Source: Sulfurovum sp.
GTDB lineage: Bacteria; Campylobacterota; Campylobacteria; Campylobacterales; Sulfurovaceae
NCBI GenBank assembly: GCA_027062365.1
Contig: JAMOTK010000006.1
Coordinates: forward strand, 1-57,631
Length of the DNA stretch: 57,631 bases
Direction of reading: 5' to 3'
Below the pieces are notes generated by a model, which was not told where the DNA came from, did not search any database, and saw nothing but the letters and a program-made list of their open reading frames with translations. This document shows positions 25,917-45,223 of this stretch, one piece after another. Both the position numbers and the translations under genes were made by a program. How positions within the stretch are numbered: the first letter of the stretch is position 1; every line of letters starts with the position of its first letter.

Positions 25917-27507
25917 TTTCTAAACCACCTACACGGCAGTCAACTGGTGCTATCATCGGGCAGAGGACAATCTTCATTTCTAAACCACCTACACGGTAGT
26001 CAACACGAAGTTAAAAAGAGGTATTTTGAGTTAAATTTTCTAAACCACCTACACGGTAGTCAACAACTACTGTTCTTCATACTCTAGCTAAGGGTATTTC
26101 TAAACCACCTACACGGTAGTCAACTGCATGGTGCCTATTATTTAACCACCTGGTATTTTCTAAACCACCTACACGGTAGTCAACTGCCACTTCAGCGATA
26201 CAACACTTTCCCACTTTTTCTAAACCACCTACACGGTAGTCAACATACAAAAATGCTCAAAGACTGCCAAGAATTTTTTCTAAACCACCTACACGGTAGT
26301 CAACGTTAAAGTGTCTATGAATAGTGAGCCAATTAATTTCTAAACCACCTACACGGTAGTCAACGCTATTTCCAAATTCTTCTATCGCTCTTTAATTTTC
26401 TAAACCACCTACACGGTAGTCAACATATTCGCATCTTTTGCATTGTTTTCTCATAATTTCTAAACCACCTACACGGTAGTCAACATAGAGAGTGATGAAA
26501 TACGCTATACCTTGGCATTTCTAAACCACCTACACGGTAGTCAACATGATGATAGTATTATTGCTGATGTTTATGATTTTCTAAACCACCTACACGGTAG
26601 TCAACAGTATATGAAAGTGTGGTACGCCGTCCTTGTGGTTTCTAAACCACCTACACGGTAGTCAACGTAGATACGTTTGTAAGTACTTCACTCTCAATTT
26701 TCTAAACCACCTACACGGTAGTCAACCTGTGATGTTCTCTAATACAGCCTTATACTTTTTTCTAAACCACCTACACGGTAGTCAACGGTAGTATGATGAA
26801 AAAAATTTACTACGAAGTTTTCTAAACCACCTACACGGTAGTCAACCAATACTAATAATAGCAATAAAACAAACAAAATTTCTAAACCACCTACACGGTA
26901 GTCAACAATGCAAAAGACGAAAGCCAAAGAGAGGTTAATTTCTAAACCACCTACACGGTAGTCAACATTAATCCCCATTTTCATGTTTTTTTGTAGCCTT
27001 TTCTAAACCACCTACACGGTAGTCAACCAAACAATGTCTACAAAGCTAAAGCCATACTATTTCTAAACCACCTACACGGTAGTCAACGAAATACAGTTTT
27101 AGTAGATGATGAAGATTTCTTTCTAAACCACCTACACGGTAGTCAACCTCTGGCAATAAAGCCATCAAAACCCCCAATATTTCTAAACCACCTACACGGT
27201 AGTCAACTGCGTCAGGATAGATGTTAATTATCCTTTGTGTTTCTAAACCACCTACACGGTAGTCAACCGTTGGAACTTCTACTGTTGCCACTTGCGTCAT
27301 TTCTAAACCACCTACACGGTAGTCAACATAATGCTTTCAGTGGTATACATTTGCATAGTTTTCTAAACCACCTACACGGTAGTCAACAATAGTTTGATAG
27401 ATAGAGGTTTACTACGTGATTTCTAAACCACCTACACGGTAGTCAACCTGGTGGTGGAGTTGTTTCATTATTCTCTGGTTTTCTAAACCACCTACACGGT
27501 AGTCAAC
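25917..27507 (-). CRISPR. Type I-F CRISPR array, 27 repeats and 26 spacers
   Basis: Twenty-seven 28-bp repeats are spaced by 32-bp spacers, with three spacers of 33. In transcript sense (minus strand) the repeat begins GTTGACTACC and ends GGTTTAGAAA, close to known I-F repeats, and forms the I-F stem ACUACC/GGUGGU. The copy at 25917 has one substitution (CAGTCAAC for TAGTCAAC on the plus strand), as expected at the old, leader-distal end. The leader is therefore at the 27507 side, next to cas6f. Several spacers resemble the inovirus prophage in this window (see findings). The ORFs that run through the array are artefacts of the regular repeat. Confidence 0.99.
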
Positions 27508-27656: not shown

Positions 27657-28259
27657 TTAAAACATGGGTAGGGTTGAGGTGTTGCTTAGTCCGTAGGTGT
27701 TGAAATTTCCTTTGTGTTCTTTTGGGCTTTCTTTTTTGACGATAAATATTTTCATTGGATGACCATTGGATAGGCTTTTGATGTTGAGGAAAGGTAGTTT
27801 GTTTTTTTCTTTTAACTTCTTGTACTTTTCTTCGGTGTTTGCATAAAGGCTTAGGGCTTCTTCTTCTGAAATATTGTTGCGTTTGGCGTGGCGTTTGGCT
27901 AGTCTTCGTATTTCTGCGTTGGATTTGAATTGTTTTCTTCCAAAAGAGGCAAAGGTTTTTATCTCTTTGGGGACTTCTTGGATTTTGGATATTTCTATAT
28001 AGTCCAATAGTCTAGCCAACCAATGATTGATATTTAATTTTTCTAATTCTTCTTTTGTTTCTGCAAAAATTCTTAGCACAGACCCAAGAGGAAAAGCCTC
28101 CTTTTGATACTGTGGGAATGCTAGACCTATAGAAAGCTTATTGTCTGCGTCTCTTCTCTCAACCAAAGCTAAGTGTATTTGAAGATACACTTTTTGCCAA
28201 ATGAAGCCAAGCGTTATCTCTGTGTCTGTGATAAGTTTTATGTCTGTGTAATAGTGCAT
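27657..28259 (-). CDS. cas6f: Cas6f (Csy4) crRNA endoribonuclease
   Basis: A 200-residue type I-F processing nuclease. It cuts each pre-crRNA repeat at the base of its hairpin and stays bound to the 3' end. The N-terminus MHYYTDIKLI and the catalytic histidine at residue 29 (VYLQIHLALV) align with the Pseudomonas Csy4 arrangement (His29). An arginine-rich helix, FKSNAEIRRLAKRHAKRN, should bind the repeat stem, and the C-terminus YGLSNTSTLPMF matches the family end. It is the last gene of the csy operon, six bases after csy3, and abuts the array leader. Confidence 0.96.
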   Translation of the reverse strand: MHYYTDIKLITDTEITLGFIWQKVYLQIHLALVERRDADNKLSIGLAFPQYQKEAFPLGSVLRIFAETKEELEKLNINHWLARLLDYIEISKIQEVPKEIKTFASFGRKQFKSNAEIRRLAKRHAKRNNISEEEALSLYANTEEKYKKLKEKNKLPFLNIKSLSNGHPMKIFIVKKESPKEHKGNFNTYGLSNTSTLPMF

Positions 28260-28265
28260 AATGGA

Positions 28266-29285
28266 CTACTTATCACTCTGACCAAAGACACCACCACGCA
28301 CAAGTACTGCCATTACATAGTGTTCTTCTTCTTTACTCTCTAGCGTTGTTCCTGTGGCAAAGTTATCAAAAAGCGTATAAAAGTCTTGCTTGTCTTTTGG
28401 GGTTCTAAAGGCTTTTCCCATATTGGTAACTGCCCCATAAGGCTCTATGGCGATTGCCCCATTTCCTGCTTCTGTAGCAAATTCTTTATACCAAGTATCA
28501 ATACTTCGCAAGGCATTGCCTATCTTTTGGGAGTGCATAGAGGCGATGCCATCTACTTCATAAAGAACTTTACCTTTTTTGCCTTGACCTTTGTCCAATA
28601 CAAGCTCTTCACTAGGATAAACCTCTTGGGCTTTGCCTACTTTGGCATAAGTCGTGACTTCTAACATCAAAAAATCGTCATCAGAGGCTAGGGCATCGGC
28701 TATTTTTTTTCCTAAGTCTATGACTTCTTTATTTTGACTTTGCATAGAACGCACAGAAAAGCTTTTGGCATCAAATGTCCAACTCTTCTGTGAGATTAAA
28801 TCTTTGATTTTCACTTCTATAGACTCTGTACCGACTCTGTTTCTCCACAAAAATCGTCCATTGGCCAAATTGAGAGCATAACGCAATCCAAGTTCTTTAA
28901 ATCCTTCTTTTTCTATATATCCTGTAACTGCTTCTTCATAAGTTCTTAAAAACTCTGTATTGTTACACGCAGAGGGGTCTTTGATGCCACCTAAGACTTT
29001 GAGCGTAAAGTTCAAAACCAAAGTATCTTGTTCGGGTGCTAAGGCACAAGAATCTACCGTTTGTAAGTTGGCTTTTTCTACTTCTGCATTGAGTTTGGCA
29101 GGGTCATTTTTAATCGCAGGTTTTAGACGATTTGCAATCGTACCTCTCACAGATTTTTCTACCAATTTCAACGCTGTTTTATCCGTTTTGTTCTCCCAAG
29201 TTGTGCCGTACATCATGCCATCTGAAGGTACTAATTTTTTCTCAAATGCTAAAACCGATGCTATTTTACTTTTTACTTTTGCCAT
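28266..29285 (-). CDS. csy3: Csy3 (Cas7f) backbone protein
   Basis: The type I-F Cas7-family protein, six copies of which normally coat the spacer part of the crRNA and set the six-nucleotide periodicity with every sixth guide base flipped out. I start at the ATG at 29285 (MAKVKSKIASVLAFEKKL, 339 residues) because AAAGGA lies seven bases upstream. The upstream ATG at 29324 would overlap csy2 and adds a non-conserved NKIITINSKEN stretch. Typical motifs include LVPSDGMMYGTTWE and FLWRNRVGTE. Located between csy2 and cas6f. Confidence 0.95.
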   Translation of the reverse strand: MAKVKSKIASVLAFEKKLVPSDGMMYGTTWENKTDKTALKLVEKSVRGTIANRLKPAIKNDPAKLNAEVEKANLQTVDSCALAPEQDTLVLNFTLKVLGGIKDPSACNNTEFLRTYEEAVTGYIEKEGFKELGLRYALNLANGRFLWRNRVGTESIEVKIKDLISQKSWTFDAKSFSVRSMQSQNKEVIDLGKKIADALASDDDFLMLEVTTYAKVGKAQEVYPSEELVLDKGQGKKGKVLYEVDGIASMHSQKIGNALRSIDTWYKEFATEAGNGAIAIEPYGAVTNMGKAFRTPKDKQDFYTLFDNFATGTTLESKEEEHYVMAVLVRGGVFGQSDK

Positions 29286-29301
29286 GTTATTTTCCTTTGA
29301 A

Positions 29302-30198
29302 TTAATTGTTATTATTTTGTTCACAGAGATAGAGACCGTGTTCTTTATCTACTGAATATTGCCATAAAATCTCATCTAAAGACTCAATTTTGTAGGGCAT
29401 TTTAAACTCTCCTAATGTCACAAGAGCTTCAGCGAAACAGTGAAGTTTCTCTGCGTCTCGTTGGTTCTTGGCTTTTCCTAGTTCAGAAATACCTTGAAAG
29501 CCTACGGCTATAGGTACTATCCATCCTGATGCTTTTCTCTTTTTTGTCCATAGTGTTTTTTCGTTTTTTTGTTCACAACTGTTATGAATAACAAGATAAT
29601 CCAAAAGTGCATCTATGCCATCTAGTCCTCTCTCCATAGCCTCTATCATCAAATCTTTTCTCTCTACAAGTACATAGCCTGGCATAAGTTTACGACGCAC
29701 ACGAGCCAACTGCTCATCATCTCTACTTTTGACTTTCAAAGTCTCTATGTTTTTAAAGTTGAGTATATCTCCACCTGCTAGTTTCATTCTGGAGTGTAGA
29801 TGATGGGCTACTCTAGCTTCAAATTTTTCTTTATCCTCTCTACTTATCCCCTCATATTCAATAAGCAACGAAACATCAAGATGTATTCTAGCCTCTTCTA
29901 TAAAAGCAGGTCGTTTACCCTCTTTATCTAAGGGATTACTTGTACCAATAATAGAATGAACATAATCGCCTACGCCTTTATGGGTCTGTAAATTGGCATG
30001 ATGGCTCACAACAGCTATAGCATTAAATCTCAAATCTTTAAATCCATCGGCGTTTAATTTGCGTTGAAGTGCATGAGTAGCACCAAGCCAAGCCGTCATC
30101 GCAGGAAATCCGATAGTAAAAGGGCTAGACAGAGCATTGGCATTTTGTACTTTGATATGAGAAAGAAGTAGTATATTTTTGATTTTTGATTTTTTCAT
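29302..30198 (-). CDS. csy2: Csy2 (Cas5f)
   Basis: A 298-residue Cas5-family protein that caps the 5' handle of the crRNA with Csy1. It begins with the usual ILLLSHIKVQNANALSSPFTIGFPAMTAWLGA, the Csy2 N-terminal signature, and has the basic segment LARVRRKLMPGYVLVERKDLM in the middle. The gene overlaps csy1 by four bases (ATGA). Length is typical of the family. The C-terminal part (YSVDKEHGLYLCEQNNNN) extends to just before the csy3 start. Confidence 0.95.
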   Translation of the reverse strand: MKKSKIKNILLLSHIKVQNANALSSPFTIGFPAMTAWLGATHALQRKLNADGFKDLRFNAIAVVSHHANLQTHKGVGDYVHSIIGTSNPLDKEGKRPAFIEEARIHLDVSLLIEYEGISREDKEKFEARVAHHLHSRMKLAGGDILNFKNIETLKVKSRDDEQLARVRRKLMPGYVLVERKDLMIEAMERGLDGIDALLDYLVIHNSCEQKNEKTLWTKKRKASGWIVPIAVGFQGISELGKAKNQRDAEKLHCFAEALVTLGEFKMPYKIESLDEILWQYSVDKEHGLYLCEQNNNN

Positions 30199-31472
30199 CT
30201 TAACGCCTCTCGCTGTTGTTCAACAGTATCTTTAATATTTTCAAACTCCCATTTTCCATTAATTTCTATGGCATTTTTATTTAAAACTTTTTTGTAACTT
30301 TGCAATATCCACGAGCTTATATCTTTTATGATTTCATCAAGCCAAAGCTCTTCTTCTCTTTCTTCTTCTTTTGATGAAAGTAACCAAATCTTTTGATAAC
30401 TTTTGAGTGTAGAGGTTTTTTCGTAATAGAGTGCATTACTCACAGCTCTTACAGCCCACATCTGCTCTATGATTTTATCTATTAGACTTTCATAATGATA
30501 GTTCTTTGCATTACGAATATCTATATTTGTATAGTCTTTTATTTGATAAATAGCATGTAAATCCATAAAAATATATTTGTATTTCCAAGGGTTCATAGAC
30601 TCTCTAAAAAAATCAGACTTTGGAAAAGGGGTATCTCTTTTTTCTATATTTGGAGGCATGGTATTGAGTAACTGTGCTTTACCTCCATTTTGAGAATTGA
30701 GTACAGATATATTTTGAGGCTTAGTCCCTCCATAGCCTATGGTAGTGAGATTATATATCTCAGCAAATCCATCTTCAGAAAATTGACTATTTTTTCTTGC
30801 TTCTCTTAAGGCTTTAAGATGCTTTTTCCCCTCTTCACCAGCTCCAAAACGGATAGTATCAAGCCTTTTTCGTAAATGGAATATCATAGCAGAGTTACTT
30901 AGAATTGAGAGTAGATGATAATCCTCATCTACAGGGAAATAGACCTGTTTTATCTTAGAACTTGTCAAAGACTCACTTGAACTCTCTATCATCTTCAAAA
31001 ACTCTTCTTTGAGTACATCATAACTTTTTGATTTAATGTTCAAAAGAGCTTTTGCCAAAGGAGTATCTTTTTGTATATGTTCTATAAGCACTATTCCATC
31101 AGGCATCATAAGATTTAAAAACTTATGCACATCCAACGCGGCTGCATTCCCCAAAGCATCTTTTTGTACCTCTACATTTCCACTGCGTAATAATCCATCA
31201 ACCCTATACTCTTTTGAGGCGATAATAGATGTCACATAGCCATTTTTATTTTTCCTAGCACTAGGATGTGAAAAGGTGCAAGGGTGTGTAGCCATAGATA
31301 TTTGTCCTGCTCTTTTGGAGGCATTGGGTAACCAAACTTCCAAAGAAAATTCCATGGCACTCTTTTCATAGAGTTCTAAAACCTCATCTTCTTCCATAGA
31401 AGCTTTGAGCTTTTTTTTCAACCAAGCTTCTTTTCGTTCATCAAAAAACTTAGTAATCACTTCATTTATCAT
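30195..31472 (-). CDS. csy1: Csy1 (Cas8f) large subunit
   Basis: A 425-residue Cas8f protein that, with Csy2, recognises the CC PAM and starts DNA unwinding. Recognisable segments are LPNASKRAGQISMATHPCTFSHPSARKN (about residues 48-75), VDGLLRSGNVEVQKDALGNAAALDVHKFL, and the conserved TIGYGGTKPQNISVLNSQNGGKAQLLNTMPP. A good ribosome binding site (AAGAAAGGAAAAATT) precedes the ATG. It heads the csy1-csy2-csy3-cas6f operon. The upstream 446 bases hold its promoter, a mini-CRISPR and a toxin-antitoxin candidate. Confidence 0.96.
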   Translation of the reverse strand: MINEVITKFFDERKEAWLKKKLKASMEEDEVLELYEKSAMEFSLEVWLPNASKRAGQISMATHPCTFSHPSARKNKNGYVTSIIASKEYRVDGLLRSGNVEVQKDALGNAAALDVHKFLNLMMPDGIVLIEHIQKDTPLAKALLNIKSKSYDVLKEEFLKMIESSSESLTSSKIKQVYFPVDEDYHLLSILSNSAMIFHLRKRLDTIRFGAGEEGKKHLKALREARKNSQFSEDGFAEIYNLTTIGYGGTKPQNISVLNSQNGGKAQLLNTMPPNIEKRDTPFPKSDFFRESMNPWKYKYIFMDLHAIYQIKDYTNIDIRNAKNYHYESLIDKIIEQMWAVRAVSNALYYEKTSTLKSYQKIWLLSSKEEEREEELWLDEIIKDISSWILQSYKKVLNKNAIEINGKWEFENIKDTVEQQREALR

Positions 31473-31507
31473 AATTTTTCCTTTCTTGAATTTATTTGCT
31501 ATACTTA

Positions 31508-31536
31508 TTCAGTATCTTATTACTGAAATGATAGCA
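31508..31536 (-). promoter_or_regulatory. csy operon promoter core with an operator-like palindrome
   Basis: On the minus strand TGCTATCAT (31536-31528) is an extended -10 element about 55 bases before the csy1 ATG. It is followed by a perfect 7-bp dyad, TTCAGTA-6-TACTGAA (31508-31527), at the probable transcription start. An alternative -10, TATAAT, is at 31566-31561. The dyad could be a repressor site. Neither start point is proven. Confidence 0.5.
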
Positions 31537-31557
31537 TAGATATTCTTAAATTATCAA

Positions 31558-31586
31558 AAAATTATAAATAATAAATAGTAGTATGG
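31558..31586 (-). promoter_or_regulatory. Probable self-target of the mini-CRISPR guide in the csy1 promoter
   Basis: On the minus strand a CC dinucleotide at 31586-31585, the type I-F PAM, is followed by ATACTACTATTTATTAT and then TTATAA. This matches the pseudo-spacer at 31622-31648 at 20 of the first 23 positions: 1-5, 7, 9-17 and 19-23. The site covers one candidate -10 and lies at about -37 to -63 of the other promoter, so bound Csy complex would block csy transcription. Confidence 0.72.
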
Positions 31587-31593
31587 TTTAACT

Positions 31594-31676
31594 ATATAAA
31601 TCTACCTACACGGTAGTAAACGCTTTTATAGATAATAAATCGAAGTATTTTCTAAGCTACCTATACGGTAGTTTAA
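31594..31676 (-). CRISPR. Degenerate two-repeat mini-CRISPR (CreR-like guide RNA gene)
   Basis: Two decayed copies of the array repeat flank a 27-nt pseudo-spacer (31622-31648). The first copy (31676-31649) matches 22 of 28 bases and keeps the hairpin CTACC/GGTAG plus the 5'-handle CTTAGAAA, while its unused 5' end has decayed. The second (31621-31594) matches 21 of 28 and keeps the 5' part with the hairpin, while its unused handle has decayed. Both changed G to A at repeat position 19, turning a U-G stem pair into U-A. This is the pattern expected if Cas6f still excises one guide from it. TATAAA at 31696-31691 or TATAAT at 31681-31676 may drive it. Confidence 0.78.
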
Positions 31677-31705
31677 TTATAAATAATTGCTTTATAATTA
31701 GTTTA

Positions 31706-31714
31706 TGATATAAT
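31706..31714 (+). promoter_or_regulatory. Extended -10 promoter for the antisense RNA
   Basis: TGATATAAT is an exact TGnTATAAT extended -10. TTGCTT at 31687-31692, 16 bases upstream, is a weak -35. The expected start at about 31721 coincides with the base of the closing stem of the structured RNA. Confidence 0.7.
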
Positions 31715-31720
31715 TTTATT

Positions 31721-31857
31721 AGTTGGGGCAGGTAGAGAGGTGTAACTCTCTACAAGCTTTTAATACGCTTTTGTTGCTAGAATTAACAGCAAAAGTATAA
31801 CAATTATAATGTTGTGCAACATTGTTATATCCTTTTTCAAGGGCTGACCCTGTCCCA
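31721..31857 (+). ncRNA. Structured antisense RNA, Sib-like antitoxin candidate
   Basis: Starting seven bases after TGnTATAAT, the plus-strand RNA can fold with a closing stem GGGGCAGG (31725-31732) with CCTGTCCC (31849-31856). Three hairpins lie inside: GTAGAGAG/CTCTCTAC, CTTTTGTT/AGCAAAAG and TATAAC plus AATGTT/AACATT plus GTTATA. Two pairs are G-U only if the plus strand is the RNA (they would be A-C on the other strand), which supports this sense. It covers the whole 20-codon toxin-like ORF and its ribosome binding site on the minus strand. Size, structure and overlap resemble Sib antitoxins. No clear U-tract terminator is seen, so the 3' end is approximate. Confidence 0.65.
31760..31822 (-). 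CDS. Ibs-like 20-residue hydrophobic toxin candidate
   Basis: The ORF ATG-TTG-CAC... encodes M-L-H-N followed by the hydrophobic core IIIVILLLLIL and the tail ATKAY. Length, uninterrupted Ile/Leu/Val core and C-terminal tyrosine resemble the Ibs toxins of Escherichia coli, which insert in the inner membrane and depolarise it. AAGGA lies seven bases before the ATG, a well-placed ribosome binding site. The ORF is co-directional with, and 97 bases downstream of, cas2-3, so it can be read from the cas1-cas2-3 message or from an AT-rich -10 (31878-31871). It is fully overlapped by a structured opposite-strand RNA. Toxicity is inferred. Confidence 0.6.
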   Translation of the reverse strand: MLHNIIIVILLLLILATKAY

Positions 31858-31870
31858 CCTTCTCCTTCAC

Positions 31871-31878
31871 AATATATA
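31871..31878 (-). promoter_or_regulatory. Possible promoter of the toxin-like ORF
   Basis: On the minus strand TGTATATATT offers a -10-like TATATA/TATATT preceded by TG. A start near 31864 would give a leader with GGAGAAGGTGGGACAGG complementary to the antisense RNA. The AT-rich context makes this a weak prediction. Confidence 0.35.
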
Positions 31879-31918
31879 CAAATGATAATCGCCCAACTAG
31901 AACTAGAAGTATATCTAA

Positions 31919-34900
31919 TTAGACTTTTACCAATCCAAATATATCACTATACTCATACTTTTCACTTTTTTCCCAAATAAAACTTAACTCTCCATATCGT
32001 AGAGAAATCTCTTTTTTACTTTTCTCTTTTAGCATTGCCTTTTCTTTAATACTCGTATTATAATCTCTAAGAAACCAACTATTATGCTCCAAACGCTTAT
32101 CCTCTTCAATTCGTGTTATCCTAAGTCCAAATTCACGATTGATAGGATTGTCAAATATATCTACAATTATCTTAGCAAATTTATCATATTGTGTAAAAAA
32201 ATACGCCTCACTCTTCTCATCATAAGTCAAAAAAACTTTTATAGAGGGTGAACTCTTTCTAAAGGGATGGAAATAATAGGGGTGAGCTGTAAGAAACCAA
32301 CTCTCGTCCAAGTATCCTTGTAGCGTATCAGCTCCCTCATCATCATAAGAGGTCAAATACTCTTCTGTTTGATAGTGTTCCAAGTCACTTAGAGACTCTT
32401 TTTCTCTTAATTTAAGAGGTTTTTGTATCCTTTCTGTGGCATCTAATCGTTTTCCAAGGGCTTTTGTATCAATAAGATGAGAGAGTTTATGTGTTTTGAG
32501 TGTTAGACCCTCTTCATACCCAGGCTTTTGAAACGAGCGTTTAGTATCATCATTGTATTGAAAAGATTTTAGATTATATTCCATCAGTCCAATATTTGGC
32601 TCATTTATAGTCTGCCCCCTATGCCTAGATACGCGTCCTGCAAGTTGTATGATAGAACGATAAGAAGATGGTTCTATTATCGCCCAGTCAAAATCATGGT
32701 CTCGTCCTACCTCTTCTACAGGTGTGGCTACGACTATAAAAAGCATATTATCTGCTTTTGCATTATCAAGATGAGAGCGAATAATCGTATTCTTAAAAGC
32801 TTCTGCTTCTTCACCCTCTTTCTCTTTTCTTTTTAATACACTATCCAAATGTCTCTCTTGTTCATGCCGTAGAAGTAGCACTTGATTGGAATGGTATGCC
32901 ATCACTCTCACTTCTATTTCATCAGGATACTCTTCAGCCATGAGATATTTTGCCAAGGCAACACAAGGCTTTATATTTGCGACTCGAAGCACTCCAAAAG
33001 AGACAGAAATATCTGTTTTTATATCTTTTGTATTGTGTTGATAATGTTTGTCTATCATCGCATTTTTGATTTTTTCAAAATAGCTCTCTTCTTCTCCTCC
33101 TATCTCATCGTGGCACTCTATTATTTCTAATTTTCGTTTAGCGACTCCTTTGGCTAAATTCTTTACCCGTTTATCTACAAAGGCTTTATGTTTGCTATTA
33201 TACGCTTCTATCGTCGTGATAGATTCTGCCTTTGTCCCAAACTCATCTATCCATGCACAGATTATAGGGCTTTTGGCTTCACGCGTTTTGGCAAAGAGTT
33301 CCCAACCTTTTTGATAGGCATTAAAATATCCCTCTGCCAAATCAGGAGGTATGGTAGCAGATGAAATCATCACTTTTCTGCCCAACAACCCTGCAAGATG
33401 TACCAGTCTTGCAATAGCCACAAGGTCAGAACCAGAGAAATCATCTATCTCATCTATGACCAAATCTGAACTCATCAAACGAAGAGAGGGCAAGATATAT
33501 TTTCCTCCTCTTTTGCTAGTTACAGCACCCATTAAGTGGTCTATAGTACATACAAGCACAGGAGCATACAAAAATTGTCTATCTCTCTCTCTTCTTAAAA
33601 TAGTATTTAAGCCCTCTTCAGGAATAGCACAATCAAAATCTATATACTCATCTAAAAGGCTTTCTATAGATTCCGAACCACTATCTACAGACTCTTGTGC
33701 TTCTGCTATTTTAGTCTCTTTATGTAATTCCAATACAGCTTTAGAACCGATAAGTACAGCCAACTCATCATCTTCTAAGCGTATTTTATCTCTATACTCA
33801 TCACCTGTTTGTAGTGTCAAAGTCCGAAGACCCAAAGCCAATATATATCTTAGGCTTTTATTATCATTAGATACGGCTCTCATTATCTTTGCATTAGCAA
33901 AAGTTTTACCACATCCCGTACTAGCCATATTGACAGCAAAAAACCCTTCTTTTTCTTTGCTATCAAGTTGAGGTTTTATCATCTGTACAGCCTTGTCTTG
34001 CCAAGAGTAGGCTTTGGGACTGGCTTTTTTTAATGCTCTATTATCCACCACTATCGGTGGCTCTTTCTCAAAAGCAGGAAGTAGATGCACTGTTTTTAAA
34101 GCACTTGCCATTACACCAAATAGATGTTCATCTAGTTTCTGTTTCATCTGCTTTGTTTTGGAGTCTGTATTGGCAAAAAGTCCGATATTATCACGCCAAG
34201 AGTTATCATTATCTTGTGAAGAATAATGGTGGTCACCGAGCATCAGACAAAGCCTAGAGTGATGAAGAACCACTCTATAGCTACCATCATCTATAGACTC
34301 ACTTAGTAAATCAGAGTTTATTATCATCCTACTAGACCATTTTTTGACACTCTGTAACCATTTACTAGCATTATTTAAAAGTCCATTAGGAAACTCAAAA
34401 CATCTCTCCACAAGTGCTTGATACTCCTTTTCTTCTCTTCTATTTTCATATCCCCAAGATTGCCTTATCTTTTTGAGTATATCTTCTATACTATATGCCT
34501 CTATTCCTTGCCATTTATCTTCAATCTCAGCTAAAGAAGTAGAATAACTAGGCAGACGATGATGAGAAACTATAAGCCAAAGTATGAGTTTCGCAGAAGA
34601 TGGTAAATCTTTTAATACACTCTCTTTCTTACGCAACTCTTTGAGTGATAAGAGTAGAGATTTTTCATCTATCTCACCTCTACTCAAGCGTTCTAGCCAA
34701 GTTGTAGGATTTTGTGAGATAAAAGCAGAAAGGAGCATACAAGATATCCACTCATGACGGATAGGGTCGCCTTTGATTTTGCTATTTGGTTTGAGTTTTG
34801 ATTGAAAAAGAGCCGTAGCTTTGCCCCAATCATGAAACAAAGCAGAAAGAGCAGTCAGAGACTTAATCAGCTCCAAATATTTCCAATCACTCTCTTTATA

Positions 34901-35200
34901 CTTATCCAAAATGGTCTTTTTTGTTCTATTGACAGGCACAATCCCCTCATCATTAAACTTATCTCTATTCCCCACTATCCATACAAGTTCAGTTCTGCTA
35001 CGGCTTCGTATCCAATGGCAACTTATAGCAGAACTTTTTGATGCTGTTTGTCTAAGTAGTTTTTTTACAGCCTTTAACCCCTCCATAGTCATAATCGTCT
35101 GCCAAGTATTAGAGCCTATTCTATCGGCAAAAGAGTCCAATACTCTGCGTGTCTTTTTGAGTGCGTTTTTCTCACACTCGGAGATGAAAGTAACTATCAT
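31919..35200 (-). CDS. cas3: Cas2-3 fusion nuclease-helicase (type I-F)
   Basis: A 1093-residue protein with Cas2 fused to the N-terminus of Cas3, the hallmark of type I-F. Residues about 1-95 are the Cas2 part (MIVTFISECEKNALKKTRRV). The HD nuclease motif is ALFHDWGKATALFQ near residue 117. The helicase has Walker A MASTGCGKTFANAK, a DEAD-box variant VIDEIDDFSGSDLV, motif III SSATIP and motif VI QLAGRVSRHRGQ. It shreds target DNA and, with Cas1, acquires spacers. The start overlaps the cas1 stop (ATGA). All catalytic motifs are intact, so the system looks functional. Confidence 0.97.
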   Translation of the reverse strand: MIVTFISECEKNALKKTRRVLDSFADRIGSNTWQTIMTMEGLKAVKKLLRQTASKSSAISCHWIRSRSRTELVWIVGNRDKFNDEGIVPVNRTKKTILDKYKESDWKYLELIKSLTALSALFHDWGKATALFQSKLKPNSKIKGDPIRHEWISCMLLSAFISQNPTTWLERLSRGEIDEKSLLLSLKELRKKESVLKDLPSSAKLILWLIVSHHRLPSYSTSLAEIEDKWQGIEAYSIEDILKKIRQSWGYENRREEKEYQALVERCFEFPNGLLNNASKWLQSVKKWSSRMIINSDLLSESIDDGSYRVVLHHSRLCLMLGDHHYSSQDNDNSWRDNIGLFANTDSKTKQMKQKLDEHLFGVMASALKTVHLLPAFEKEPPIVVDNRALKKASPKAYSWQDKAVQMIKPQLDSKEKEGFFAVNMASTGCGKTFANAKIMRAVSNDNKSLRYILALGLRTLTLQTGDEYRDKIRLEDDELAVLIGSKAVLELHKETKIAEAQESVDSGSESIESLLDEYIDFDCAIPEEGLNTILRRERDRQFLYAPVLVCTIDHLMGAVTSKRGGKYILPSLRLMSSDLVIDEIDDFSGSDLVAIARLVHLAGLLGRKVMISSATIPPDLAEGYFNAYQKGWELFAKTREAKSPIICAWIDEFGTKAESITTIEAYNSKHKAFVDKRVKNLAKGVAKRKLEIIECHDEIGGEEESYFEKIKNAMIDKHYQHNTKDIKTDISVSFGVLRVANIKPCVALAKYLMAEEYPDEIEVRVMAYHSNQVLLLRHEQERHLDSVLKRKEKEGEEAEAFKNTIIRSHLDNAKADNMLFIVVATPVEEVGRDHDFDWAIIEPSSYRSIIQLAGRVSRHRGQTINEPNIGLMEYNLKSFQYNDDTKRSFQKPGYEEGLTLKTHKLSHLIDTKALGKRLDATERIQKPLKLREKESLSDLEHYQTEEYLTSYDDEGADTLQGYLDESWFLTAHPYYFHPFRKSSPSIKVFLTYDEKSEAYFFTQYDKFAKIIVDIFDNPINREFGLRITRIEEDKRLEHNSWFLRDYNTSIKEKAMLKEKSKKEISLRYGELSFIWEKSEKYEYSDIFGLVKV

Positions 35201-36153
35201 AAGAGTTTGACTTTCCCATAATACATAGAAGCCTTTTTCACCTCAGCAAACATAAAATCCAAGGCTTTATGTTCTATAAATTTTTGTAAAACATAATATC
35301 TAAACTCTTTTTCATTCATGCCTTCTTTGGCACAGATAAAAGCCGAAGGTAAGACAATGGCATCTTTGATGAGGTCTGCTACATCAAAAACCAATGCCCC
35401 TCGTCGTGTCTTGCCATGCATCAAAGCAAAACCATGAGAGATACCCAAAACCCATAGTGTCGTAGCTCCTAATCCATAAGCCAAATAATTGCCATGATTT
35501 AAAAAGCTATTCGTCTCATCAGGATTATCATGGTCTCGTTTAAAGTTTTTCAGGTTTGTCTTTTGAGCAGAATAGGCATAAAGTTTTTTTGTTAGCTCTG
35601 CTTCAAGGGTGAGTAGTTTATTTACATTATACGCACCTTCTATATCTAACAATGCTTTTTCTAATAGGCGTTTGAGTCTATCATCATCTACATCAAATCC
35701 TGCAAATTTGAGTTCTTTGTCTTTTGCCCATATTTTTTGTATAAAGCCTATTCGTGCCATTTGAATTCTTTTAGCACTTGCAAGTCTTTTGTCCTCTTCA
35801 AACCAAAAATTCATCCACCCTTGAATATAATCCGTCGGACGGTATTCACTTTGAGGAGTAAGCCATTCTATCTCTGTTCCCATAATTAGAGGCGTAGCAC
35901 CACTCCCCGAAAAGCCAACAAGCACACCTGCACTTGCCAACATACGCATAGCAGCTTGTGTGATAGATGTACCTGTACCTAATAATAAACAAGTGGTATT
36001 GGCAATAGGGATATTCCAATATTGATATTCTTCTTTTGCTTCGGTGAGATAAAGCACTCTTCCATCTTTTTGCATCACACGACACTTTTCAAGATAATAG
36101 ATATTGGCTCGTTTGGAGTGAAGTATGGCTTTGAGGTCTGTGAGTTGTTCCAT
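35197..36153 (-). CDS. cas1: Cas1 integrase (type I-F)
   Basis: A 318-residue I-F Cas1, the integrase that inserts new spacers. Recognisable parts: LKAILHSKRANIYYLEKCRV at the start, LLGTGTSITQAAMRMLASAGVLVGFSGSGATPL, NHGNYLAYGLGATTLWVLGISHGFALMHGKTRRGALVFDVADLIKDAIVLPSAF with the catalytic Glu-free/His/Asp region, and a helical C-terminus. The glutamate of the active site should be in ELTKKLYAYSAQ or nearby. It is first in the cas1 and cas2-3 unit. The upstream gap to ribBA is only 55 bases, so its promoter must be compact. Confidence 0.96.
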   Translation of the reverse strand: MEQLTDLKAILHSKRANIYYLEKCRVMQKDGRVLYLTEAKEEYQYWNIPIANTTCLLLGTGTSITQAAMRMLASAGVLVGFSGSGATPLIMGTEIEWLTPQSEYRPTDYIQGWMNFWFEEDKRLASAKRIQMARIGFIQKIWAKDKELKFAGFDVDDDRLKRLLEKALLDIEGAYNVNKLLTLEAELTKKLYAYSAQKTNLKNFKRDHDNPDETNSFLNHGNYLAYGLGATTLWVLGISHGFALMHGKTRRGALVFDVADLIKDAIVLPSAFICAKEGMNEKEFRYYVLQKFIEHKALDFMFAEVKKASMYYGKVKLL

Positions 36154-37576: not shown

Positions 37577-37661
<85 letters not shown>

Positions 37662-37822
37662 TAATCACTTTTTTTATAGAACCTATATTCCTTCATTCGG
37701 TGCAGTCACTGATTTTATCTCATTTCAATACATATTCATAAAAAATATTCATGTACAAGCTAAAATAAACACTTTTAATTTTTAATCCATACCTAAGCAT
37801 AAACAAAAATCTTTATATTTTT

Positions 37823-38065
37823 TTATTTTTTTAAAATATCTTTTATGCAAAGAAAAATATCTTCTTCAATAATAGTATATGATTTTCCTATATCTATATC
37901 ATATTCTTTTCTAATATTTCTTCCTAACGATCTTTTTAAATAGCGTTTAAATCCACCACTCTTTCCAAATTTATATCCGTCTATTAGAATAGAATTTATT
38001 TTTTCAAAAATGATTTGGATTTCGTTATCTGTAAATTCTAATTCTAATAAGTCTTTGGTTTTCAT
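37823..38065 (-). CDS. Phage hypothetical protein, 80 residues
   Basis: A small, charged, Ile/Lys-rich protein (MKTKDLLELEFTDNEIQII...) without membrane span. It is the last minus-strand gene of the prophage, one base after the upstream small gene, so co-translated. The basic middle (KSGGFKRYLKRSLGRNIRK) could bind nucleic acid. No family recognised. In inoviruses this position next to the replication gene often holds regulators or host-takeover proteins; in a prophage beside an active CRISPR locus an anti-CRISPR is also conceivable, but nothing in the sequence shows it. Confidence 0.65.
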   Translation of the reverse strand: MKTKDLLELEFTDNEIQIIFEKINSILIDGYKFGKSGGFKRYLKRSLGRNIRKEYDIDIGKSYTIIEEDIFLCIKDILKK

Positions 38066-38066
38066 C

Positions 38067-38309
38067 TTAAACCCTTTTCATTTTATCAAATATCTTAACT
38101 ATCTCAGACTTTTCTATAACATCATATATATCAAGCTCTTTAACATAGTTTGAGATAGTTTTAACTTCAGGTTCCAAAGGTAAATCCCAATATCCATCCT
38201 CTACATTAGTGCTATCCATGGTTAGTATAAATTGATTACCTCTCTTCATAATTCTTAAAGTTACAGTTCGACCCATTTTAGTTTTAATATCTACTTTTTT
38301 TATTGTTCT
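38067..38309 (-). CDS. Phage hypothetical protein, 80 residues
   Basis: I begin this gene at the ATG at 38309 (MRTIKKVDIKTKMGRTV) because AAAGGA lies five bases upstream. The longer frame starting at 38354 runs into the terminal repeat of an inserted MITE and its first residues (LYAEWL) are encoded by that repeat. The product is small and beta-prone, with VTLRIMKRGNQFILTMDS suggesting a compact binding domain. It has no membrane span. It lies between the MITE and the 80-residue terminal gene. Function unknown. Confidence 0.65.
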   Translation of the reverse strand, partial: RTIKKVDIKTKMGRTVTLRIMKRGNQFILTMDSTNVEDGYWDLPLEPEVKTISNYVKELDIYDVIEKSEIVKIFDKMKRV

Positions 38310-38332
38310 CATAGTGTTTCCTTTCATTTTTC

Positions 38333-38484
38333 GTAACCATTCAGCATACAACAATTTTTTCTTAAACTAATATCTATTTTAAATAAAAAGTCACTATTAA
38401 TATAGAAAAAGCTTATTGTTTAAGCTAAAAAGTACATAAATATACTCTAATTAGAGGTTTTTTGGAGTGATGCTGAATGGTTAC
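38333..38484. mobile_element. 152-bp MITE with 15-bp terminal inverted repeats
   Basis: GTAACCATTCAGCAT at 38333-38347 is inverted exactly at 38470-38484. The same eight bases, CATTTTTC, flank both ends (38325-38332 and 38485-38492), a clean target duplication. No transposase is inside, so it is a non-autonomous element. The same terminal repeat occurs at 57449-57463 beside a transposase fragment. GTAA ends with an 8-bp duplication fit IS66-type mobilisation, though the family is not proven. The insertion reshaped the 3' end of the replication gene. Confidence 0.82.
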
Positions 38485-40021
38485 CATTTTTCATATTCAA
38501 ATCAATCTCACTAAAATCACATCTAAAATCATCTCTAAACTCTTCTATATCTAAATAATCCCCATGTTTTAAACTCCTATCGATTAATGTATTATACGCA
38601 AGTGCATAACGTTCTGGAGCATACTTATCAAAATCAAAATAATTACAAAAGTCTAAAAGTTCTAAATCAGACATTTGTTTTACAGGCTTAATAAATTGTT
38701 CTTTCTCTAAATAAAGAATATTTCCATCTATATCAAAAAAATCAATAGTATCAGGTGCAGAAATTAAAGAAAAATTATCTATATTTTTAAAAACAAAAAG
38801 TGAACCATCATCTAAAGATTTAAAAATAGAATACACCGTAGGTAATTTAGGAAAAACAATTTCATATCTATCTAAAATACTAAAAGTAGGAGGTCTAAGG
38901 TCTCCAAACATAATAAAGTCTAAAGATTTTAAAAGTAACTTTTTAACACTATTCTTACTTTTACCCATGGATGCTACTATCTTATTATTATTAAAAATAA
39001 TGACTCGACCATCTTTTCCCAAAATAATACGACCATAACCATCATCAATCTTAAAATAATTATTTTCTAAATTTCTCTCATAAAGACCATTTTTCTTTAA
39101 TTGTGAGAGCATAAACCAATCATCTTCTAAAACAGCTATTTTCCCATAGACATCTTGAGCCAATAAAGTATGTGTAGTAATCACTCTAGGGATTCTATTA
39201 TGCACATACCAAGCTTGAAGGTAATCTAATTTTTTTTCCTCAAGTAAATTAATAAACGATTTGAAAAGATATTTCAGAATATAAGAAACAGCTGAATAAA
39301 CTTCTGTTTGAAAACCATGAGTTTCATAAATGCCCTCTGCTATCTTTGAAGCATTACGACTATGTTTACCCTTAGTATTCTTTTTTGTAAGCTTTAGAGT
39401 ATTTCTAGGAGCAGGAAAGCATTTAGCAAAATCAATATAAATAGATGCTATAGAGTGTTCTGGTACATACATTAAAATATGAAAATGTGGTACACCATCT
39501 TTATGTGGTTCTGTGACCCTTATACTCATGTAATCAAAACCCTCTTTTCTTATATTTCTAAGAGAAGAAGACATATTAAAATTATGAAGTTGATGAGATA
39601 AAATCTTATACAAATCTTTAGGAGTCAATGAATTTACACGTGAAGTCATATAATCCCTATAAAAACCATTTCTATCGCTATTAGGTATATGTCTCTTATA
39701 ACTTTCTTCTAGCTCTAGAGTGTATCTTGTATAATTACCTTTAAGCAAATCTCTAAAAAATCCATCCAAAGTAACTGTAAGAAAAATAGGAACAAGATTT
39801 TTAGAAATACCAAGGCTTACAAAAGTATTAACTTTATTGTAAATCCTAGCATAATAGCGTTCTGAAATGTTAGCAGCATAAGAAACATCTAAAAACGTTT
39901 TCTCTTCACCTGTAGTATCTGATACAAAAGTATTTGATTCTAAGAAATTCTTTTGTTTTTTTATTTTTTCCCTAGATTTAAATAAATCTCTTTGAGTTAA
40001 TCCATAAGTAACAGATGACAT
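38447..40021 (-). CDS. Inovirus replication initiation protein (pII-like HUH nickase)
   Basis: A 524-residue rolling-circle initiator. The metal-binding HUH motif is GVPHFHILMYVPE (about residues 175-187), and the tyrosine motif VSYILKYLFKSF (about 245-256) has the Y-x3-Y-x2-K layout of phage GPA-type endonucleases. It nicks the plus origin so that single-stranded genomes are displaced. The start (ATG at 40021) overlaps the secretin stop by one base. The last 13 or so codons (GNHSASLQKTSN) come from the MITE terminal repeat, so the native C-terminus has been replaced. A CRISPR spacer (26606-26638) resembles the HUH region. Confidence 0.88.
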   Translation of the reverse strand: MSSVTYGLTQRDLFKSREKIKKQKNFLESNTFVSDTTGEEKTFLDVSYAANISERYYARIYNKVNTFVSLGISKNLVPIFLTVTLDGFFRDLLKGNYTRYTLELEESYKRHIPNSDRNGFYRDYMTSRVNSLTPKDLYKILSHQLHNFNMSSSLRNIRKEGFDYMSIRVTEPHKDGVPHFHILMYVPEHSIASIYIDFAKCFPAPRNTLKLTKKNTKGKHSRNASKIAEGIYETHGFQTEVYSAVSYILKYLFKSFINLLEEKKLDYLQAWYVHNRIPRVITTHTLLAQDVYGKIAVLEDDWFMLSQLKKNGLYERNLENNYFKIDDGYGRIILGKDGRVIIFNNNKIVASMGKSKNSVKKLLLKSLDFIMFGDLRPPTFSILDRYEIVFPKLPTVYSIFKSLDDGSLFVFKNIDNFSLISAPDTIDFFDIDGNILYLEKEQFIKPVKQMSDLELLDFCNYFDFDKYAPERYALAYNTLIDRSLKHGDYLDIEEFRDDFRCDFSEIDLNMKNGNHSASLQKTSN

Positions 40022-41193
40022 TATAGAACCTCAATTAAGATGTTTATATTTTGTTCTTCAACTTCTTTACTCTTATTTTTAAATAATTCTCCAATGAGTG
40101 GAATATGAGAGATTAAAGGAATAGCTCTATTATTTTCTTTTTTAAACATCTTTTGAATGCCAGTCAATAAAATAGGTGTTCCTTCTTCTACTTTGATAGT
40201 GTTTTTATAGGATATTTTTTGCGTAATAGGACGGTTGTCAGTATTTGAAATAAGCTCTTCCAGGACTAAATCTAAATCAAGAAAAACCCAATTATCTTTT
40301 ATCTTTGGTAAAATGTTTACCTGTAAGCCAATATCTTTATAATCATATTGTTCTGTAACTGAATTGGTTTGACTGTCTACTGTGGCACTAAGTTTAAGAT
40401 AAGGCAAATTAATTACAGAATTTGTAGAAGATTTTTTACCATTGGTAAGCTTAATAATAGGCTCTTGAAATATATCTGAATATCCCCACTCATTCATCAT
40501 CTTTAATGTCAAATCAAAATCAAAAAAAGAGTTAATCTTTATAGTTGCAGGATTATCCGTAAGCAAAGAATCAAAGGCTTTACCTATCGTACCATCAAGA
40601 GAAAGAGAAAAGTCTTTAATATCTGTACCTGACTCTTTTAAATCTTTTTTTCTTACAGCAAATATTGTTATTTTTATAGTTTTAGAAAGTACTTTGTTAT
40701 CTGTTTCTAATAAAATACGTTCAATCGCTTCATGTGTTTCTACATTGGAAGAATAGGCTATCATATCAGATTGTTTCAAATATTTATAATTTACACCAGT
40801 AAATACAGACATAGCCTCAACTACATCTTCATTATTAGTATTCTCAATCTTATACGTATAGTAATGTAATTTATCAACTGGAGAAACAAGAGCAGAAGCA
40901 GGAAGAACTTCACGCTTTTTATCTTTGTAGACAACCTTATAATATGGTGGTTTAGCATTGTAATCTAAACGCATATCATGCTCATCAAGTACATCTGAAA
41001 AAAAAGAATAAATTTCTGTTTTAGATTGATGATTAGCGATATTAAACTCTACAGAATAATCTTTTATATTTTTATCCATGTAAATATTAATTTGTATATC
41101 TTCACTAGCTAAACTAGCTAAGTCCCTAAAAGTAATAGTATTACTTATTAGTATTTGTGTGAGTAGTCCTATCATAACGATTGTCTTTTTCAT
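40021..41193 (-). CDS. Inovirus secretin (pIV-like)
   Basis: A 390-residue protein with a signal peptide (MKKTIVMIGLLTQILIS). An N-terminal N0/N1-like region (about 22-165) precedes the secretin domain (about 195-390), which has FQEPIIKLTNGKKSS, a VNILPKIKDNWVFLDLDLV beta segment and the conserved VEEGTPILLTGIQKM ... IPLISHIPLIGELFKN motif of type II/III secretins. It should form the outer-membrane channel for virion exit. Its start lies 53 bases inside the Zot gene. The leader carries AGGAGCTAACA just before ATG, an initiation sequence repeated before three other phage genes. Confidence 0.93.
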   Translation of the reverse strand: MKKTIVMIGLLTQILISNTITFRDLASLASEDIQINIYMDKNIKDYSVEFNIANHQSKTEIYSFFSDVLDEHDMRLDYNAKPPYYKVVYKDKKREVLPASALVSPVDKLHYYTYKIENTNNEDVVEAMSVFTGVNYKYLKQSDMIAYSSNVETHEAIERILLETDNKVLSKTIKITIFAVRKKDLKESGTDIKDFSLSLDGTIGKAFDSLLTDNPATIKINSFFDFDLTLKMMNEWGYSDIFQEPIIKLTNGKKSSTNSVINLPYLKLSATVDSQTNSVTEQYDYKDIGLQVNILPKIKDNWVFLDLDLVLEELISNTDNRPITQKISYKNTIKVEEGTPILLTGIQKMFKKENNRAIPLISHIPLIGELFKNKSKEVEEQNINILIEVL

Positions 41194-42175
41194 TGTTAGC
41201 TCCTTGAAATAGATGTATAAATTCTGTAGTAGCCATCACTGTGACCACTGCATAATTTTCTGAATAACTTTTAAATGTTAAAAACTTTGAATTTGTTTGG
41301 GTAACCGTAGCATTTAAATCATCTACCAATATATTAATATGATGCTCATTATTTTTACAAGAAAGACTTGAGCAATTCAACTTTATGTATGTAGTGGATT
41401 TTAAAAACGTATTTTTAGATTTATCCTTTAATTCGATTTTTGAAACTTCATCAGGTTCTTCTATATTTAAATCTTTATCAGGTTTAGAAAACAAAGAGAC
41501 AAATCCATTAAGAGTAAAAAGAAAGATAATAAAAAGCCCAATCAAATAGTATTTCAATTTGGCACGAAAGCCACCATCACCCAAATTTGACTCGCCTGAA
41601 GTGTAATAATCAAATACTTCTTTCTTTGGCTTCACTGATTCAGTTTTAAATGCATTCTTACCTATCTTAATATCATCAACATGAGAAAAGTACCTGTACT
41701 CAAGAACCTTAGCTCTTAGACGTTCGGTAGGAGACATCGCAGTAATAACCACATCGCCCAGGTCATGAAATAGAGTGTTTAACTGTTTGCGTGTTTGGGT
41801 AATTAAAAAGATATTTAGATTCACGTGTCTTTGTAATGCAAGGAAAAACATTAAGAAATCTTTTTTCTTTGTATTATTAAATCCATAGATATGGGCTTCA
41901 TCAATAAATATAGCACAGTCAGCGATTCCCTTATCTCTTAATGAAATATAAATCTCTTCTTCACTGGTTAAATTCTCTTGGGATAAGTTATATAAATCTT
42001 CTATAAAACTAAGCCAATCCCCCATCTTATCTCTATCTAAAAAAGTATACCCAGCCACAAACTTTGTAAATTCAATATTAGAAAATACAGGACGAGTCTT
42101 TAGCTCTTCTAGTATCAATGTCACAGCCTTATAAGATTTACCTGAACCTGTCTTGCCAAATACATACGTAATCAT
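41141..42175 (-). CDS. Zot-like assembly ATPase (pI)
   Basis: A 344-residue inner-membrane ATPase. Walker A is VFGKTGSGKSYKAV at the N-terminus and Walker B is CAIFIDEAHIYGF (about residues 90-102), as in the zonular occludens toxin/pI family. A single membrane span (YLIGLFIIFLFTLNGFVSL) near residue 215 separates the cytoplasmic ATPase from a periplasmic tail rich in Lys, Asn and Thr. It drives extrusion of the filament through the secretin. The start overlaps the pVI-like gene by four bases and the C-terminal codons overlap the secretin gene. Confidence 0.93.
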   Translation of the reverse strand: MITYVFGKTGSGKSYKAVTLILEELKTRPVFSNIEFTKFVAGYTFLDRDKMGDWLSFIEDLYNLSQENLTSEEEIYISLRDKGIADCAIFIDEAHIYGFNNTKKKDFLMFFLALQRHVNLNIFLITQTRKQLNTLFHDLGDVVITAMSPTERLRAKVLEYRYFSHVDDIKIGKNAFKTESVKPKKEVFDYYTSGESNLGDGGFRAKLKYYLIGLFIIFLFTLNGFVSLFSKPDKDLNIEEPDEVSKIELKDKSKNTFLKSTTYIKLNCSSLSCKNNEHHINILVDDLNATVTQTNSKFLTFKSYSENYAVVTVMATTEFIHLFQGANNEKDNRYDRTTHTNTNK

Positions 42176-42477
42176 ACAGAATCCTTAAAATAAGAAAGTG
42201 CAAATTTAGCCCAAAAACCCAAAGCAACAATTTGGAAGAAAATACCCAAAGCAGGAAAAACACCAATCACATTTATAGCGTAAGCATTGCAACCGTCTAA
42301 CCCTGCAAAAGAATAATTTCTAATATAAGACAAAAAGTAATCTACAAAATAAATAATCAACGAAGAAAAGAAAAAGAAGAAAGCCAAACGAGCAGCTATC
42401 TTAATACTCTTTTCTAATCCACTACCAAATATCTTTTTAACTGCTTCTATTAAAGCCGATACAATCAATCCCCACAT
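42172..42477 (-). CDS. Minor virion protein, pVI-like
   Basis: A 101-residue membrane protein with three hydrophobic segments (about 23-45, 60-75 with NAYAINVIGVFPALG, and 76-95). The size and place between the pIII-like adsorption gene and the Zot gene are those of filamentous-phage gene VI. It overlaps both neighbours, by one base upstream and four downstream. It would cap the end of the filament together with pIII. Sequence identity to known pVI is not claimed. Confidence 0.8.
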   Translation of the reverse strand: MWGLIVSALIEAVKKIFGSGLEKSIKIAARLAFFFFFSSLIIYFVDYFLSYIRNYSFAGLDGCNAYAINVIGVFPALGIFFQIVALGFWAKFALSYFKDSV

Positions 42478-43844: not shown

Positions 43845-43871
43845 AGTTAGCTCCTATAAAAATAAATTAAA

Positions 43872-44051
43872 TTAACGCGTAATCAAAAATGAAAAGATAG
43901 AACCACACATCAACCCTGCAAGAGCCGACATAAATGCATAATCTTCTTTTGTCATTTTTAATTGATGTGGTGTAGGTAAATCACCCAACCAACCAGCTTT
44001 GGCATAAACAACCACCGAAAGAACCATAATTACAAATATAAACTTCTTCAT
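43872..44051 (-). CDS. 59-residue small membrane virion protein
   Basis: A short gene, ATG at 44051, with GGAG six to nine bases upstream (AATAGGAGATATTA). The product has a signal-like start (MKKFIFVIMVLSVVVYAKA), a polar middle (WLGDLPTPHQLKMTKED) and one membrane span (FMSALAGLMCGSIFSFLI). It lies 27 bases upstream of pIII, where filamentous phages encode small coat proteins (pVII/pIX-like). Assignment is by size, topology and position. It may be a minor coat protein or an assembly helper. Confidence 0.72.
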   Translation of the reverse strand: MKKFIFVIMVLSVVVYAKAGWLGDLPTPHQLKMTKEDYAFMSALAGLMCGSIFSFLITR

Positions 44052-44177
44052 TAATATCTCCTATTAAAAATAACATTTATGACAACACGAATAGACCAGC
44101 CACTTAAAGTAAAGAAAAAAACCAAATTAAAGAAAAAGTCAAAAGGCTTATTTCCTGTCCAAACTATGTTTACATAT

Positions 44178-44909: not shown

Positions 44910-44917
44910 ACTATCCC

Positions 44918-45109
44918 CTATCTTTTCAAGAGGTAAATAACCAAACCAATTCCGAAGATAAGAGCCGCAACACCAATCATAGCTGTACCTGCATTGGTTA
45001 CACTTGTACTGGCATCAGCCAAATCAATAGCAATCGGTGCAGCAGAAGCAGTAGCAGTAGCTAAAGCAAACAAAGAAGCTAATTTAGCTTTGGTAGATAA
45101 ATTTCTCAT
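44918..45109 (-). CDS. Major coat protein, pVIII-like
   Basis: I begin at the ATG at 45109 (MRNLSTKAKL), with AAAAGG six bases upstream; the longer frame from 45190 would add an atypical basic extension. The 63-residue precursor has a signal peptide cut at about AATASAA|P (after residue 23-24) and a mature domain of about 40 residues: acidic start (APIAIDLADAS), a hydrophobic helix (GTAMIGVAALIFGIGLVIYLL) and the basic end KR that contacts DNA. This is the classic inovirus coat design. The 27-residue upstream codons include sequence matched by CRISPR spacer 27148-27179. Confidence 0.9.
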   Translation of the reverse strand: MRNLSTKAKLASLFALATATASAAPIAIDLADASTSVTNAGTAMIGVAALIFGIGLVIYLLKR

Positions 45110-45223
45110 AACAAACCTTTTTAGCGATTTTAAAATTTTGAGACGACCCACGCTAATAAACGAGTCTATCTTTGGCAATAAAGCCATCAAAGCACAATGT
45201 TTAAATGTGCTTCAATAGGTTTA

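What the first reader, a model, noticed from the sequence alone, without database searches (positions are those of the whole stretch)
26606..26638. Spacer matching the HUH motif of the phage replication gene, CC PAM kept
This 33-nt spacer matches 39474-39506 at 25 of 33 bases, across the codons for GVPHFHI, and the flanking 39507-39508 GG gives a CC PAM. Most mismatches are third-position-like transitions (A/G, C/T), as expected for a homologous gene of a related phage. The guide's seed has mismatches at 1, 4 and 7, so interference with the resident prophage should be weak.
Basis: seen in the sequence. Interest (0 to 1): 0.7.

Follow-up and report, generated by a model that had tools for sequence, protein, structure and literature searches.

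The report
CRISPR spacer from related filamentous phages
A Sulfurovum bacterium keeps in its CRISPR memory a fragment of a filamentous phage's replication gene; its own resident phage carries the same protein motif spelled with different synonymous codons, so the memory should not cut it: a real and tidy case of a well-known kind of arms race.

Summary
Spacer 15 (26606-26638) of a 26-spacer type I-F array matches the resident inovirus Rep gene (39474-39506) at 25/33 with a CC PAM; 0 of 4000 dinucleotide shuffles match the window as well. CC plus the spacer reads in frame as PHKDGVPHFHI, identical to the resident Rep; seven of 8 mismatches are silent third-position changes, and the eighth, in a cut codon, could be silent too. 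Prophages of other Sulfurovum genomes match better: 29/33 with guide positions 1-9 perfect, then 28/33 twice. So the spacer was most likely taken from a related inovirus. The resident, integrated in a tRNA-Met gene (68-bp att repeats), differs at seed positions 1, 4, 7 and at 31-32, so cleavage should fail; priming is possible but untested. At least three more spacers point to this phage group: 26 (pIII-like gene), 2 (Rep C-terminus), 6 (intergenic element before the coat gene). Inovirus spacers and escape by point changes are known: a new member of a known kind. In passing: a CreR-like mini-CRISPR lies before csy1, guide and target covarying across five genomes; a review in the library names CreR autorepression for I-B, I-E and V-A, not I-F.

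The parts
26606..26638 (-). spacer 15 (counted from the leader side), 33 nt, crRNA sense CCACAAGGACGGCGTACCACACTTTCATATACT
39474..39506 (-). degenerate protospacer of spacer 15 in the resident rep gene, 25/33
39507..39508 (-). CC PAM (GG on +); the two bases are also the first two of a Pro codon
25917..27507 (-). type I-F CRISPR array, 27 repeats of 28 nt, 26 spacers; last (leader-distal) repeat at 25917 is the degenerate one
27657..36153 (-). type I-F cas genes: csy4, csy3, csy2, csy1, cas2-3 fusion, cas1, all open
37607..48893 (-). resident inovirus prophage between 68-bp direct repeats 37607-37674 (3' part of tRNA-Met) and 48826-48893
38447..40021 (-). Rep, rolling-circle initiator of the Phage_GPA kind, HUH = H179-F-H181, tyrosines Y247/Y251
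40021..41193 (-). secretin (pIV-like)
41141..42175 (-). Zot / pI-like assembly ATPase
42477..43844 (-). pIII-like attachment protein (by position, signal peptide, acidic repeats, C-terminal membrane segment)
   Evidence: by inference
46399..47307 (-). tyrosine integrase
25945..25976 (-). spacer 26 (oldest), matches 43760-43791 (pIII-like gene) 26/32 with CC, 0 of 4000 shuffles
43760..43791 (-). degenerate protospacer of spacer 26; PEDCPLPDDST (spacer) against PEDCPLPKNST (resident); mismatches 4, 14, 19, 20, 22, 23
27388..27419 (-). spacer 2, matches the Rep C-terminal part of inoviruses: L032 27/32 without CC, resident 38562-38593 22/32 with CC, same position in the protein (aa 477)
27148..27179 (-). 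spacer 6, matches 45170-45201 (24/32, 19 in a row, no CC), an intergenic element before the coat gene, in the same place in L041 and L047

Best explanation
The spacer is an immune memory that a type I-F system took from the rep gene of an inovirus related to, but not the same as, the resident prophage. The site encodes the HUH motif of the rolling-circle initiator, which is why it can still be recognised between diverged phages. The CC PAM is the start of a Pro codon, so every wobble base lies at guide position 1, 4, 7, 10 and so on: silent codon drift falls on seed positions and never on the flipped-out sixth bases. The resident prophage, with silent differences at 1, 4, 7, 10, 13, 22, 31 and a further one at 32, is therefore not cut, which lets it live next to the array. 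Shown: the match, the PAM, the codon pattern, better-matching relatives, the intact cas genes and the prophage with att sites. Inferred: the source phage, that the crRNA is made, that the resident escapes cleavage. Open: whether weak binding primes new spacers.
For: 25/33 with CC, 0/4000 shuffles. CC+spacer reads PHKDGVPHFHI; full-codon mismatches synonymous 7/7 against the resident, 4/4 in L044, 5/5 in L047, 5/5 in L041. Other Sulfurovum prophages 29/33 (positions 1-9 perfect), 28, 28 with CC; 0/300 shuffles reach 29 (null maximum 24). At least three further spacers point to the same phage group. All I-F cas genes open. Prophage bounded by a 68-bp repeat in tRNA-Met. Rep is the only copy in the genome. 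Literature: self-targeting of an inovirus is lethal in P. aeruginosa PA14 (I-F) and rare, 45 of 1429 genomes (PMC6813254).
Against: No exact source phage was found; none of the hits is better than 29/33. The best hit lies in a rep gene that is broken further downstream. No expression data; the array could be silent. Escape could owe something to an anti-CRISPR or to cas repression as well.
Confidence: 0.9

Rival explanations
1. Chance similarity: a 33-mer in an AT-rich window matching by luck.
For: Scores of 22-24 are common for AT-rich spacers in this window.
Against: 0 of 4000 shuffles; in-frame identical peptide; 28-29/33 in independent prophages with CC.
Confidence: 0.01
2. The spacer was taken from an ancestor of this very prophage, which then drifted under CRISPR pressure after it had entered the cell.
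For: Same peptide and same PAM; mismatches in seed positions are what escape would select.
Against: The resident is further from the spacer (25/33) than prophages in at least three other Sulfurovum genomes (28-29/33); mismatches are spread over wobble positions along the guide, like neutral codon drift, and not limited to the seed.
Confidence: 0.06
3. The target would be cut, and the resident survives because the I-F system is off or blocked by an anti-CRISPR.
For: The prophage has small unknown genes (37823-38065, 38067-38354, 47693-48031) and an HTH gene at 47402-47665.
Against: Not needed: three seed and two PAM-distal mismatches already predict no cleavage; R-loops of 26 bp or less do not fire Cas2/3 in a I-F1 system (PMC7296934). 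Cas genes are open and a regulatory mini-CRISPR is kept.
Confidence: 0.05

Closest known systems
Inovirus-matching CRISPR spacers and inovirus self-targeting, Roux et al. 2019 (PMC6813254)
   Same: Host spacers against inoviruses across many bacterial families and eight CRISPR subtypes; prophage and array in one genome.
   Different: They counted only 0-1 mismatch; here the match to the resident has 8 mismatches and would not have been counted. It is a memory of a relative and not true self-targeting.
Primed adaptation in type I-F, Pectobacterium atrosepticum (PMC4117759)
   Same: A I-F system with a GG/CC PAM and a spacer that mismatches its target; that paper cites type I-E priming with up to 13 mismatches over 35 nt, and this target has 8.
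   Different: Priming is not shown here: no spacer in the array has a near-perfect match to the resident prophage.
Type I-F CRISPR-Cas with csy1-4, cas2-3, cas1
   Same: Gene set, 28-nt repeat, 32-33-nt spacers, CC PAM.
   Different: No difference seen in the gene set; a mini-CRISPR lies before csy1 (see noticed in passing).

Membership tests
CRISPR-Cas type I-F array and effector | csy1-csy4, cas2-3 fusion and cas1 present and open | tested here: met
CRISPR-Cas type I-F array and effector | 28-nt repeats with a short hairpin, about 32-nt spacers | tested here: met
   27 repeats, spacers 32 nt (23 of 26) or 33 nt (3 of 26), core CTACC-GTGTA-GGTGG
CRISPR-Cas type I-F array and effector | CC PAM at real targets | tested here: met
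   spacer 15 in at least eleven prophage Rep sites, spacer 26 in the resident; the best hits of spacers 2 and 6 lack CC
CRISPR-Cas type I-F array and effector | interference activity | not testable with these tools
   needs an experiment
Inovirus prophage | Zot/pI-like ATPase with rolling-circle Rep, secretin and small coat gene in one module | tested here: met
   the coat match is weak (phrog_1859, E 1.5e-4)
Inovirus prophage | integration with att repeats and integrase | tested here: met
   68-bp repeats, 99 per cent alike, in tRNA-Met; integrase
HUH endonuclease (Phage_GPA) | HUH histidines and catalytic tyrosines conserved | tested here: met
   H179, H181, Y247, Y251 invariant in 13 relatives; Pfam E 4.6e-13; PDB profile hits weak (E 0.018-0.26) but mostly viral Rep
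Self-targeting spacer (0-1 mismatch) | near-perfect match to the own genome | tested here: not met
   best matches to the resident prophage are 25/33 and 26/32; the rest of the genome was searched only for further rep copies (none)

The most novel reading that the evidence does not exclude
Degenerate crRNAs from this array, above all spacer 26 (one seed mismatch, start of the pIII-like gene) and less so spacer 15, bind the resident prophage without cutting and hold its genes down, in the way the CreR-like guide of the same locus is expected to hold down csy1, so that host and prophage live in a tolerated state.
Probability: 0.04. Interest if true: 0.75.

Novelty: new member of a known kind. 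Interest (0 to 1): 0.35.

Why it matters
It gives a clean natural example of how silent codon drift alone can undo CRISPR immunity even when the spacer covers a catalytic motif that the phage cannot change: when the CC PAM is in codon phase, the wobble bases land on seed positions 1, 4 and 7. It also shows repeated contact between Sulfurovum and inoviruses, recorded in at least four of 26 spacers from the oldest to nearly the newest.

Tried and rejected
An exact source phage was looked for and not found: Rep protein in IMG/VR (no relative by the peptide patterns) and in GenBank phages (no match); a codon-degenerate HUH pattern in IMG/VR (2 contigs, 26/33 at best) and in GTDB contigs (7, up to 29/33); 175 genomes of the family (8 with the pattern). 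Patterns for spacers 26 and 6 in IMG/VR gave nothing. Spacer 16 (23/32) and spacer 1 (22/32) against the prophage were rejected as chance level. Spacer 18 against L041 (25/32, CC) is borderline and not used. That only conserved sites are recognised is a detection bias: it does not show that the host prefers conserved motifs.

Full report
Check of the observation. The array at 25917-27507 has 27 repeats and 26 spacers; it lies beside a complete set of type I-F genes (csy4, csy3, csy2, csy1, cas2-3, cas1) and, like them, is read on the minus strand, with the degenerate repeat at the low-coordinate, leader-distal end. The finding's spacer is number 15 from the leader side, 33 nt. Its best place in the window outside the array is 39474-39506, 25/33, next to 5'-CC; the second best place has 20/33. 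None of 4000 dinucleotide shuffles reached 25 anywhere in the window or next to a CC.

What the site is. 38447-40021 encodes a rolling-circle Rep (Pfam Phage_GPA, E 4.6e-13; PHROG 'nicking at origin of replication'). In an alignment of 13 relatives H179, H181, Y247 and Y251 are invariant, so HFH is the HUH motif. The gene lies in an inovirus prophage with secretin, Zot, pIII-like, coat-like and integrase genes, bounded by 68-bp repeats at 37607-37674, the 3' part of a tRNA-Met gene, and 48826-48893. There is no second copy of this Rep in the genome. The host belongs to Sulfurovum: genomes listed as same genus as the window's carry contigs whose lengths and loci equal those titled Sulfurovum sp. 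in GTDB.

Codon evidence. CC plus the spacer reads in frame as PHKDGVPHFHI, identical to the resident Rep. Seven mismatches are third-position silent changes; the eighth (position 32) lies in a cut codon and fits Leu TTA against CTN. The same holds for the nearest relatives: 4 of 4, 5 of 5 and 5 of 5 mismatches silent in L044, L047 and L041. This is the mark of homologous coding DNA under selection for protein sequence, and chance does not produce it.

Source. Relatives of the rep gene were found in 33 of 200 related genomes. The spacer site scores 29/33 in G030 (positions 1-9 of the guide perfect, CC), 28/33 in G039 and G052, 27/33 in G099, 26/33 in several others and 25/33 in the resident; no shuffle of 300 exceeded 24 in the same 380 kb. 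The spacer therefore most likely came from a relative nearer to the G030 phage than to the resident. No exact source was found.

Other spacers. Spacer 26, the oldest, matches the start of the pIII-like gene (43760-43791), 26/32 with CC, 0 of 4000 shuffles; PEDCPLPDDST against PEDCPLPKNST. Spacer 2 matches the Rep C-terminal part at the same place in the protein (aa 477) in the resident (22/32, CC, 2 of 400 shuffles) and in L032 (27/32, no CC, 0 of 300 shuffles in the prophage set). Spacer 6 shares 19 bases in a row with an intergenic element upstream of the coat gene (45170-45201; 0 of 400 shuffles) that lies at the same place in L041 and L047, but without CC. So inoviruses were met several times over the life of the array. 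Only conserved sites can be recognised at this distance, so the bias to Rep is no evidence of choice by the host.

How it works. Established knowledge for type I-F (not tested here): seed positions 1-5, 7 and 8, every sixth base flipped out. A I-F1 system with the last 6 bp mismatched does not trigger Cas2/3 (PMC7296934). With mismatches at 1, 4, 7 and at 31, 32 the resident should not be cut. Because the PAM lies on a Pro codon, wobble bases fall on positions 1 mod 3, which include three seed positions and never the flipped-out ones (0 mod 6); silent drift in this frame thus gives escape while the HUH motif stays unchanged. Priming is possible, since a type I-E system primes with up to 13 mismatches over 35 nt as cited in PMC4117759, but no spacer in the array closely matches the resident, as expected if such cells die: self-targeting of an inovirus is lethal in PA14 and rare, 45 of 1429 genomes (PMC6813254).

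Comparison and verdict. Spacers against inoviruses and mismatched spacers are known; this is a well-documented new member. Interest is moderate.

In passing. Between cas2-3 and csy1 lies a mini-CRISPR (31671-31649 repeat, guide from 31648). The first 20 nt of its guide match 17/20 a CC-flanked site at 31584-31557 in front of csy1, with mismatches at 6, 8 and 18, two of them flipped-out positions. In G034, G059, G111 and G103 the guides differ and each fits its own promoter best (16-19/20; 0-1 of 20000 shuffles). This covariation points to CreR-type autorepression in type I-F; a review in the library names I-B, I-E and V-A (PMC13131331), and another says type I and V-A (PMC12737573). G059 and G034 were first met through the repeat pattern itself, so they are not unbiased draws; of the csy1 loci found by protein, L094, L097, L098 and L101 showed no such element, and L096 could not be judged. 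The original CreR paper was not read here, so whether I-F cases were listed there is unknown.

Noticed in passing
window 31557-31671 (minus strand, between cas2-3 and csy1): CreR-like mini-CRISPR: a repeat, a guide ATACTTCGATTTATTATCTATAAAAGC and a degenerate repeat; the guide matches 17/20 a CC-flanked site in the csy1 promoter (mismatches 6, 8, 18). Four other Campylobacterales I-F loci (G034/L095, G059/L065, G111/L099, G103/L100) have different guides, each fitting its own promoter best. Likely RNA-guided autorepression in a subtype (I-F) that the library's review does not name among the shown cases.
   Followed up: partly
window 45170-45201; L041 3548-3579; L047 16062-16093: Conserved intergenic element TTTGATGGCTTTAT(T)GCC upstream of the inovirus coat gene, with a possible small hairpin (GGC...GCC); may be a packaging or regulatory signal; spacer 6 covers it.
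   Followed up: partly
window about 38334-38350 and 38470-38486: Inverted copies of about GTAACCATTCAGCAT lie on both sides of the region just downstream of rep; a possible origin or resolution site of the phage (read by eye).
   Followed up: no
window 47402-48453 (plus strand): Between the integrase and attR lie an HTH gene, an unknown 112-aa gene and a zinc-ribbon gene on the opposite strand to the phage genes: accessory cargo, with an anti-CRISPR not excluded.
   Followed up: partly
G030:C8 1097-2642 (L044) and G052:C28 22027-23515 (L047): Two of the rep genes with the best spacer match are interrupted: stops and a frame change in G030, split into two frames near codon 190 in G052; decayed prophages or assembly errors.
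   Followed up: no
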